From the IMG/VR virus record IMGVR_UViG_3300013307_000010, positions 1-45,633 of that record: a stretch of DNA of 45,633 nt, one strand, 5' to 3'. Positions 41,725 through 43,142 of the stretch are shown piece after piece. The translations under genes were made by a program, and so were the position numbers. The notes under the pieces were generated by a model. The model did not search any database. It saw nothing but the letters and a program-made list of their open reading frames with translations, and was not told the origin of the DNA. This DNA is from a virus. Numbering within the stretch: the first letter of the stretch is position 1; the number at the start of each line of letters is the position of its first letter.

Positions 41725-41751
41725 CAAAAAAAAAGCCCACCGAAGTGGGCA
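41725..41751 (-). terminator. Strong intrinsic terminator
   Basis: Minus strand GCCCACTTCGGTGGGC followed by nine T. It ends transcription coming from the 42.7-kb promoter, before the fibre gene. Confidence 0.93.
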
Positions 41752-41826
41752 AACACACAACACAGGCAATTATCGAGGAAATCCGTGAGGATTGTACAGC
41801 GGGTGGTGCGGGGAGTGCAAGTTAGG

Positions 41827-42060
41827 TTGTGGTGGCAGGTGCTGAACTCCTGCTTTGGTGTCATGTCGATTTCAGAGGCTCGCGGCACCGTGACGCTCTC
41901 GAAGCTAATCAGCCTGAGCATTCACCACAACGGTAAGATAACTGATTGATGCATTGTGGCTCTGGTATCAGCCGCGCCGACTACATTCGCGGTACCACTA
42001 TAACCTGATAGTTAATTTGTGGATTACTTTTAGGCCCGCCCAGTTATCTTACCTGTTGTG
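41827..42060 (-). ncRNA. Candidate structured RNA module A
   Basis: Core 41827-41930 closes with TTGTGGTG/CACCACAA and contains the hairpin GCAGG (41835-41839)/CCTGC (41849-41853) with a 9-base loop. The CACCACAAC edge can instead extend a 19-bp pairing between 41926-41944 and 42041-42060 (one bulge). The two pairings exclude each other. Related to module B. The strand is inferred from the flanking leftward promoter and terminator. Confidence 0.5.
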
Positions 42061-42239
42061 TTCCGGTCTCTTCCCAGACGTCAAACCTGATCGCCACAGC
42101 GGTTAACTGCACTGATGGAAACACTTAAACCACGGCTACATCATTTCCTGTTACCGATTGTGCCACCAGGAAGGCCAAAAGGATAAGCCTGGCTACAACC
42201 GCAGGTATCGCCACATGATGCACTGGCGGAAATATTAAG

Positions 42240-42419
42240 TGTGGTGGCCGGTGCTGATCTCCGGCTTGCCTGATCAAAAGCACTTATTAGATCGGTATCC
42301 CCTCTGCGCAATGCATGGCGGGATTTCGCGCGCATCAGCCTGCGCATTCACCACATCGCAGAACCCTGAAGCCCTCTATGTTGCCCAGACGTGCAACACC
42401 TCAAGATCCTGCGATGTGG
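42240..42419 (-). ncRNA. Candidate structured RNA module B
   Basis: Core 42240-42355 closes with TGTGGTG/CACCACA and contains the hairpin GCCGG (42247-42251)/CCGGC (42261-42265) with a loop differing from that of A by one base. The same CCACA edge can instead form a perfect 11-bp pairing between 42351-42361 and 42409-42419. Compared with A, the third base pair of the hairpin changes from A-T to C-G, a compensatory change. Confidence 0.5.
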
Positions 42420-42440
42420 CTTCTGGCTTCCGTTCCATAA

Positions 42441-42641
42441 TCAGTCAATCCAGCTTAAATCCACTACAACCATCTTACCGCGATATAGCCTTACCGTTGA
42501 CTGGTTATCGCTGACCGCCTTGATTACGCGGTGAATGCTTTGGTACTTACCCGGCAGCGCTGATGCTTCGACTACCGCAATCTTTCGTTCTGAATCCTTT
42601 GCCTGCTGGATAACCTGCCTGGCGAAATCGGTGTTGCTCAT
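42441..42641 (-). CDS. Hypothetical protein, 66 aa
   Basis: MSNTDFARQVIQQAKDSERK...; a mixed alpha/beta protein ending in GKMVVVDLSWID. The only gene behind the strong leftward promoter at 42671. It has CAGG eight bases before the ATG. No family recognised; it might be an early leftward regulator. Confidence 0.65.
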   Translation of the reverse strand: MSNTDFARQVIQQAKDSERKIAVVEASALPGKYQSIHRVIKAVSDNQSTVRLYRGKMVVVDLSWID

Positions 42642-43142
42642 ATCCGTTACCTGCTTGCCCTGATGAATTGATTATCCGTTAACGGCGGCCGGGTGTCAAC
42701 TGGATATGGATAATATTTAAATTTGCCGTTTGGGGGAGAAAATTTTGCCCTCAGGGGGCCACTTTTGGGGCGTCTAAAATGTACAAATTTTTCCTTTAGA
42801 TACATATACCTATATCAATAATATAAGAGGGGGGGGTAAATGGGGGTATAGTCTATATTTTCATAACAATACATGCTTATTACTGTTCATTTGTACAGTT
42901 GTACGTGATTATTTTTATATGGGCATGGAAAGGGGGCACCCCCATTGCCCCCAAACAGAAAATTAATCAAAAAAAAGCTTCAATTACTGATGCTTATACA
43001 TAGTTTCAGGTGAGGGCAAAAGACGCCCCTGGGGGCACCCCACTGCAACTCCATGCAACAGGATTAAATGTGCGTGATGAGCTATAAGTATTGCTTTTTA
43101 TATAATGGGTGTTACTATGAATACTCAATCAGAGGGGGATGT
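42642..43142. other. Non-coding AT-rich region, candidate replication origin
   Basis: 500 bases without a gene, between a leftward gene and the rightward DUF3987 operon. GC-rich blocks (TTTTGCCCTCA 42743-42753, GGGGCGTCT 42767-42775) recur inverted and fused at 43011-43029. Between them is an AT-rich stretch (42780-42970) with a G8 run at 42829-42836, a 9-base TGTACAAAT inverted repeat, and GGGGGCACCCC palindromes. A TATAAT box at 43101-43106 may serve the 43143 gene. Origin function is inference. Confidence 0.45.
42671..42699 (-). promoter_or_regulatory. Strong leftward sigma-70 promoter
   Basis: Minus strand TTGACA (42699-42694), 17-base spacer, GATAAT (42676-42671): a perfect -35 and a 5/6 -10. 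It drives the 66-codon gene and, if not terminated, the structured modules A and B. Confidence 0.85.

What the first reader, a model, noticed from the sequence alone, without database searches (positions are those of the whole stretch)
41827..42419. Tandem structured non-coding modules with alternative pairings and a compensatory change
Modules A and B share a closing stem (TGTGGTG/CACCACA), a hairpin with a near-identical 9-base loop, and about 19 bases (CAGCCTG(A/C)GCATTCACCAC). The hairpin differs by A-T to C-G at one pair, so pairing is preserved. In both copies the CACCACA edge also belongs to a second long pairing (19 bp in A, 11 bp in B) that cannot coexist with the closing stem. The region lies between a strong leftward promoter and a strong terminator and lacks convincing genes. 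It could be a pair of regulatory RNAs, an attenuator, or something like the C4/P4-type phage immunity RNAs; the last is only an analogy.
Basis: partly seen in the sequence, partly recalled or inferred. Interest (0 to 1): 0.75.

Follow-up and report, generated by a model that had tools for sequence, protein, structure and literature searches.

The report
Phage tRNA-like RNAs with swappable cargo
This phage carries two copies of a previously unrecognised kind of RNA gene, a tRNA-shaped frame whose anticodon arm is replaced by a different RNA 'cargo' in almost every copy; the same frame occurs in hundreds of phages, including the laboratory classic P1, and in about a quarter of complete E. coli genomes.

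Summary
Both modules are real, lie on the minus strand, and belong to a large RNA family absent from Rfam and invisible to ARAGORN. The closing stem TGTGGTG/CACCACA behaves as a tRNA acceptor stem of exactly 7 bp. Then follow a 4-5 bp D-like arm, a hypervariable insert (6-178 nt; 103 unrelated clusters) in place of the anticodon arm, and a 5-bp T-like arm abutting the acceptor strand. The D and T loops kiss by 5-6 bp. Covariation supports all four pairings. tRNA genes are ~27 times denser within 300 nt of a module than beyond 2.5 kb, all on the same strand. A sister module at the same position is hit by Rfam's tRNA model, with TGTGGTG as acceptor. Phage P1 carries four unannotated tandem units behind its tRNA genes. 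Identical frame plus cargo occurs in P1, IME207 and lambdoid prophages with unrelated flanks. The 'alternative pairing' is a conserved upstream hairpin sharing the acceptor strand. Rfam's STnc100, related to the Hfq-dependent sRNA PasD, is a sister class. Most likely it is a stable tRNA-like scaffold presenting interchangeable cargo. Fold and family are well supported; function is inferred.

The parts
42671..42699 (-). sigma-70-type promoter TTGACA-17-GATAAT driving the leftward transcript (predicted)
   Evidence: consensus scan, 11 of 12 matches
42441..42641 (-). 66-aa ORF of unknown family directly behind the promoter; may or may not be a gene
42351..42419 (-). unit B upstream hairpin H (arms 42401-42419 and 42351-42369, insert 42370-42400); its 3' strand overlaps the acceptor strand
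   Evidence: inverted repeat, folding z -7.2
42240..42355 (-). unit B tRNA-like frame: acceptor 42349-42355/42240-42246, linker 42346-42348, D-like arm 42330-42345, T-like arm 42247-42265
42266..42329 (-). unit B cargo (64 nt), unique among the sampled modules
41926..42060 (-). unit A upstream hairpin H (5' arm 42041-42060, 3' arm 41926-41944, insert 41945-42040); homologous to H of DP01, KlebP_265 and E. coli MB07152
41828..41929 (-). unit A tRNA-like frame: acceptor 41923-41929/41828-41834, linker 41920-41922, D-like arm 41904-41919, T-like arm 41835-41853
41854..41903 (-). unit A cargo (50 nt), unique among the sampled modules
41735..41754 (-). intrinsic terminator of the leftward transcript (predicted)

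Best explanation
The locus encodes two tandem units of a phage RNA-gene family. Each unit has a long upstream hairpin (H) and a tRNA-like frame: 7-bp acceptor, D-like arm, T-like arm, and loops joined by a 5-6 bp kissing interaction. The anticodon arm and variable loop are replaced by an interchangeable RNA cargo. Shown by sequence: the secondary structure and its covariation, the constant-frame/hypervariable-cargo design, the tRNA-cluster location, and movement of whole cassettes between unrelated phages. Inferred: the RNA is transcribed leftward here, folds in three dimensions like a tRNA, is matured and protected from nucleases by that frame, and the cargo is the working part. The cargo probably base-pairs with RNAs, as the Hfq-dependent sister PasD/STnc100 is thought to do, or binds and decoys a host or defence factor; rapid cargo turnover would reflect changing targets.
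For: Exactly 7-bp acceptor, 5-bp T arm with no spacer, D arm and loop-loop pairing in 146 scaffold-distinct copies, with changes on both sides above shuffles. Rfam's tRNA model accepts a sister module with the same acceptor, 40 bits. 103 cargo clusters in one frame. One cargo family has 14/14 pairs kept, 12 with double changes. Identical frame plus cargo in P1, IME207 and mEp460 with unrelated flanks. tRNAs 27-fold denser nearby, 92/92 on the same strand. Terminators behind 43 of 186 copies versus 1.1 expected. STnc100 has the same plan and matches units in Magnus and P1; its relative PasD is Northern-validated and Hfq-dependent.
Against: No expression data for this class or this phage. Cargos on average fold little better than shuffles (mean z -0.47). 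Only 46 of 256 modules have a tRNA within 1.5 kb. D and T loops lack the canonical tRNA bases, and the window modules are not hit by the tRNA model. No target or partner is known.
Confidence: 0.6

Rival explanations
1. Processing signal ('t-element'): the tRNA-like frame is a substrate for tRNA maturation enzymes and releases neighbouring phage tRNAs or mRNAs; the insert is neutral filler.
For: Position within and next to tRNA clusters, same strand; tRNA-like acceptor and T arm; inserts can be as short as 6 nt.
Against: A cargo family shows strong covariation; a cargo is kept 100% identical across unrelated phages; many copies have no tRNA nearby, and some have their own promoter or terminator.
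Confidence: 0.15
2. Decoy for tRNA-targeting host defences (anticodon nucleases, retron or Septu effectors): a tRNA look-alike that absorbs the nuclease.
For: tRNA-like frame inside tRNA arrays; phage tRNAs do counter such defences (PMC11555353); hypervariable cargo fits an arms race.
Against: No enrichment of anticodon-loop-like hairpins in the cargos; canonical D/T loop bases are lost; no defence assay.
Confidence: 0.2
3. Folding switch or attenuator: the acceptor 5' strand pairs either with H or with the acceptor 3' strand, to regulate downstream transcription.
For: Both pairings are conserved; GTTG of the acceptor strand faces CAAC of H in the listed units.
Against: No downstream gene is constant between phages; many copies have no H-like hairpin (69 of 178 upstreams); here the last unit is followed by a terminator and the oppositely placed tail-fibre operon.
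Confidence: 0.1
4. DNA-level mobile element or recombination site (MITE-like or attC-like hairpin).
For: Exact cassette boundaries at the acceptor ends and transfer between unrelated phages; terminal inverted repeats.
Against: Internal arms and loop-loop pairs covary; strand is fixed relative to tRNAs; the interior is not conserved as in a MITE; ends do not fit the attC core pattern (own knowledge).
Confidence: 0.04
5. Small protein-coding genes annotated over the modules.
For: Hypothetical proteins are annotated across modules in KlebP_265, mEp460, Bas80 and others.
Against: Insert lengths fall in all three frame classes (30/34/39); overlapping window ORFs match no Pfam family; constraint is on pairing.
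Confidence: 0.02

Closest known systems
STnc100 (Rfam RF02076) and PasD prophage sRNAs
   Same: Same plan in the Rfam consensus structure: closing stem with UGGUG/CACCA, GAAU, a D-like hairpin, an insert, and a last 5-bp hairpin abutting the closing strand; one unit of the P1 array matches it and one in Magnus passes gathering.
   Different: Different D and T arm sequences; the window modules do not match RF02076; the passages read do not describe a tRNA-like plan.
tRNA (RF00005) and degenerate phage tRNAs
   Same: Acceptor 7 bp, D-like arm, T-like arm of 5 bp with no spacer, location in tRNA clusters.
   Different: No anticodon arm; T loop of 9 nt without TTCRANT; D/T loops joined by 5-6 base pairs; not detected by ARAGORN or RF00005.
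tmRNA and bacterial Y RNAs
   Same: tRNA-like domain with something other than an anticodon arm (own knowledge).
   Different: No tag reading frame, no rsr/Ro partner gene seen; not matched by Rfam.
GOLLD and ROOL RNAs
   Same: Structured phage/prophage RNAs of unknown function near tRNA islands (PMC12286853).
   Different: GOLLD members often exceed 800 nt and assemble as cages; no sequence or plan shared; no Rfam match here.
Engineered tRNA scaffold for recombinant RNA
   Same: Works-like analogy: an RNA of interest placed in a tRNA frame for expression in E. coli (PMC3753655 uses such scaffolds).
   Different: Artificial; the natural frame here has kissing loops and an extra H hairpin.
C4 antisense RNA (P1/P4-type immunity)
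   Same: Phage-encoded structured RNA.
   Different: No Rfam match; in P1 these units lie in the tRNA array next to tciA.

Membership tests
tRNA-like RNA (topology) | 7-bp acceptor stem closing the structure | tested here: met
   7 pairs at 92-100%, next two at 62% and 53%
tRNA-like RNA (topology) | 5-bp T arm abutting the acceptor 3' strand | tested here: met
   95-99% paired, no spacer
tRNA-like RNA (topology) | D/T loop contact | tested here: met
   5 pairs at 95-99% and a sixth at 79%; changes on both sides in 3 pairs; the type of contact differs from that of a tRNA
canonical tRNA (RF00005) | anticodon arm and score in tRNA models | tested here: not met
   ARAGORN and cmscan find none in the window
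canonical tRNA (RF00005) | encoded or added CCA 3' end | tested here: inconclusive
   CCA at the right offset in about 12% of copies, but as frequent one base further (15%)
STnc100 (RF02076) | score at or above the gathering threshold | tested here: not met
   window: none; sister units: Magnus 52.9 bits passes, P1 unit 4 33.9 bits does not
Hfq-dependent base-pairing sRNA | Hfq binding and RNA targets | not testable with these tools
   reported for PasD (PMC8550237), not for this class
C4 antisense RNA | match to the C4 family | tested here: not met
GOLLD/ROOL | match to the Rfam families | tested here: not met

The most novel reading that the evidence does not exclude
Phages of Proteobacteria maintain a natural tRNA-scaffold cassette system: a constant tRNA-like frame, often in tandem arrays inside tRNA clusters, that displays exchangeable functional RNA cargos and spreads horizontally as exact units. 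STnc100/PasD would be one branch of the superfamily.
Probability: 0.45. Interest if true: 0.92.

Novelty: new variant of a known kind. Interest (0 to 1): 0.83.

Why it matters
A widespread RNA gene family appears to have gone unannotated: matches in 242 of 50,697 phage records, 1,340 of 5,426 complete E. coli genomes and 688 plasmid records, and four tandem units in P1. If the cargo reading holds, phages evolved a general RNA display scaffold built on tRNA, the same trick biotechnologists use. That would give a reason for odd RNAs in phage tRNA clusters and a structural frame for the poorly understood prophage sRNAs STnc100 and PasD. It is directly testable in P1 and E. coli K-12.

Tried and rejected
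Rfam at gathering and at E up to 5 on the window: only chance-level hits. Literature search by sequence strings: nothing. Full-text searches on tRNA-like phage RNAs gave only context papers; one malformed search failed. Anticodon-loop mimicry in cargos: not enriched. General cargo structure by folding energy: weak (mean z -0.47). Promoter at a fixed distance as a family-wide rule: only a subset (score 8 or more in 12 of 69 upstreams without H, versus 6% of shuffles). Encoded CCA: weak and not at one offset. MITE/attC and protein-coding readings: see rivals. Automatic alignment of cargo family I mis-registered one helix, so pairs were counted on a hand register; that leans towards the structure, but the double changes are plain in the letters.

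Full report
WHAT WAS CHECKED. The window is a 45.6-kb virus record; its first 20 kb have no near relative among 50,697 phage records. The region 41735-42699 lies between a leftward operon (tail fibre with collagen repeats, terminase, portal) and a rightward helicase gene. A strong leftward promoter and a leftward terminator bracket it. There is no Rfam match and no tRNA in the window.

A LARGE FAMILY. BLAST first found Klebsiella phages DP01 and KlebP_265, Salmonella phage IME207, Plesiomonas phage phiP4-7 and an E. coli prophage. The exact 20-mer GTGGTGAATGCNCAGGCTGA then hit at least 120 stretches of viral contigs and 43 stretches in one-genome-per-species data, mostly Enterobacterales, with others in Aeromonas, Janthinobacterium, Xenophilus and Hahella. 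A 60-nt query made only of the two conserved edges matched 242 phage records, 1,340 of 5,426 complete E. coli genomes and 688 plasmid records. It is in P1, D6, HK620, mEp460, Magnus, ep3, Bas77-80, ZC03 and PAJU2.

CONSTANT FRAME, HYPERVARIABLE CARGO. Read on the RNA strand, copies follow TGTGGTG-AAT-GCGCAGGCTGATGCGC-[insert]-GCCGGAGATCAGCACCGGC-CACCACA. The edges are nearly invariant. The inserts are unrelated between phages: 103 clusters, 6 to 178 nt per cluster representative, median 69. Lengths fall in all three frame classes, so this is not a reading frame. Scans by the 3' edge and by the upstream hairpin brought in copies not selected on the 5' edge. A reversed/complemented decoy gave no hits.

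IT IS tRNA-LIKE. In 146 scaffold-distinct copies the closing stem is exactly 7 bp, the last hairpin is a 5-bp stem that abuts the 3' closing strand with no spacer, and the first hairpin is a 4-5 bp stem with GG in its loop. That is the tRNA plan of acceptor, D arm and T arm. The two loops are complementary over 5-6 nt. Changes on both sides occur in 6 of 7 acceptor pairs, 4 of 5 D pairs, 4 of 5 T pairs and 3 of 6 loop-loop pairs, against shuffle means of 0.8, 1.2, 1.6 and 0.9. Examples are L333/L269 (GGTCGAT with GTTCGAC) and L049 (GACTGAT with ATCAGT). These shuffles do not control for relatedness, and the percentage of paired cells of the kissing does not exceed shuffles, because the loops are so conserved. 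Independent support: other modules follow the same upstream sequence GCTCTNNCCGTTGTGGTG. The one in L259 scores 40 bits with Rfam's tRNA model (gathering 29), which takes TGTGGTG as positions 1-7, the following D and T arms as such, CACCACA as the 3' acceptor strand, and passes over 68 nt in the anticodon region.

tRNA NEIGHBOURHOOD. ARAGORN tRNAs occur at 0.29/kb within 300 nt of modules and about 0.011/kb beyond 2.5 kb; all 92 within 1 kb are on the module's strand. In P1 the 900 nt after tRNA-Asn and tRNA-Thr hold four tandem units without RNA annotation. In ZC03 the module lies within a row of tRNA genes. Still, only 46 of 256 modules have a tRNA within 1.5 kb. In HK620 the module sits between pR'/qut and terminator tQ, in PAJU2 after the Q-like gene, in mEp460 behind the repressor gene. 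At least four prophage copies carry TTGACA-18-TACATT just upstream, and 43 of 186 have a terminator within 150 nt (1.1 expected). So some copies look like free-standing RNA genes.

THE ALTERNATIVE PAIRING. It also carries hypervariable inserts (117 clusters), 13 with a T-arm-like hairpin (0.2 expected). The H of unit A is homologous to those of DP01, KlebP_265 and E. coli MB07152, with changes on both sides of 4 pairs, whereas the cargos differ: units are shuffled piecewise. The competition for GTTGTG is conserved; its meaning is unknown.

THE CARGO IS SELECTED, AT LEAST IN SOME. One cargo family (L035, L083, L235, L043, L094, L164, L210) keeps three helices: 14 of 14 pairs in all sequences, 12 with changes on both sides, around fixed segments such as GGCAAGACAA. 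Another cargo is 100% identical in P1, IME207, mEp460 and several prophages, while 100-nt flanks are at random identity (0.48-0.55; random mean 0.50). Average folding energy of cargos is only slightly better than shuffles, so this is not shown for all.

LINK TO A KNOWN RNA. Rfam STnc100 (RF02076) has the same plan in its consensus structure: closing stem with UGGUG/CACCA, a D-like hairpin, and a last 5-bp hairpin abutting the closing strand. It matches Magnus at 52.9 bits and P1's fourth unit below gathering (33.9 bits, E 1.7e-5). STnc100 shares structure with PasD but has a different seed (PMC13192938). PasD was seen on Northern blots and is Hfq-dependent (PMC8550237). STnc100 RNA was detected in STEC vesicles (PMC12370729). 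The passages I read do not describe the tRNA-like plan; subscription literature could not be searched, so the novelty claim is limited to that.

JUDGEMENT. Shown: the observation, the family, the tRNA-like secondary structure and the cassette design. Inferred: transcription in this window, tRNA-like 3D fold and maturation, and function through the cargo. I favour a stable tRNA-like scaffold presenting interchangeable cargo, most simply for base-pairing as proposed for PasD, possibly for decoying host or defence factors (phage tRNAs are known counter-defences, PMC11555353). I file it as a new variant (phage sRNA on a tRNA-like frame) and give the bolder reading as the novel case.

Noticed in passing
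L126 2920-3820 (phage P1, OP279344.1 about 65553-66453): Four tandem H + tRNA-like units behind tRNA-Asn and tRNA-Thr, with no RNA annotation; units 1 and 3 are of the window's class, unit 2 is another frame class, unit 4 is STnc100-like.
   Followed up: partly
L127 5556-5770 (phage Magnus) and Rfam RF02076: STnc100 reads as a tRNA-like frame: its last hairpin abuts the closing stem as a T arm does.
   Followed up: partly
output: L116, L255, L259, L270, L285, L316, L317, L319 and others: At least eight other frame types follow the same GCTCTNNCCGTTGTGGTG and end in CACCACA-like strands; the superfamily is much wider than the class studied here.
   Followed up: partly
L035, L083, L235, L043, L094, L164, L210 (cargo inserts): Cargo family I is a separate covarying RNA motif (three helices, GGCAAGACAA, possible GGG/CCC pseudoknot) that may be searchable on its own.
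   Followed up: partly
window 42441-42641, minus strand: 66-aa ORF of unknown family directly behind the leftward promoter; may be a moron gene co-transcribed with the RNAs.
   Followed up: partly
window 42740-43060: Repeated G-run/C-run blocks such as GGGGGCACCCC in the AT-rich stretch between the divergent operons.
   Followed up: no
L342 1965-2672 (HK620): A module lies in the pR'-to-tQ late leader, a stretch probably transcribed also in lysogens; the same place as in Detrevirus PAJU2.
   Followed up: no
KlebP_265, mEp460, Bas80 and RCS47 records: Hypothetical proteins (and 'Plp' in RCS47) are annotated over the RNA modules; some are probably spurious.
   Followed up: no
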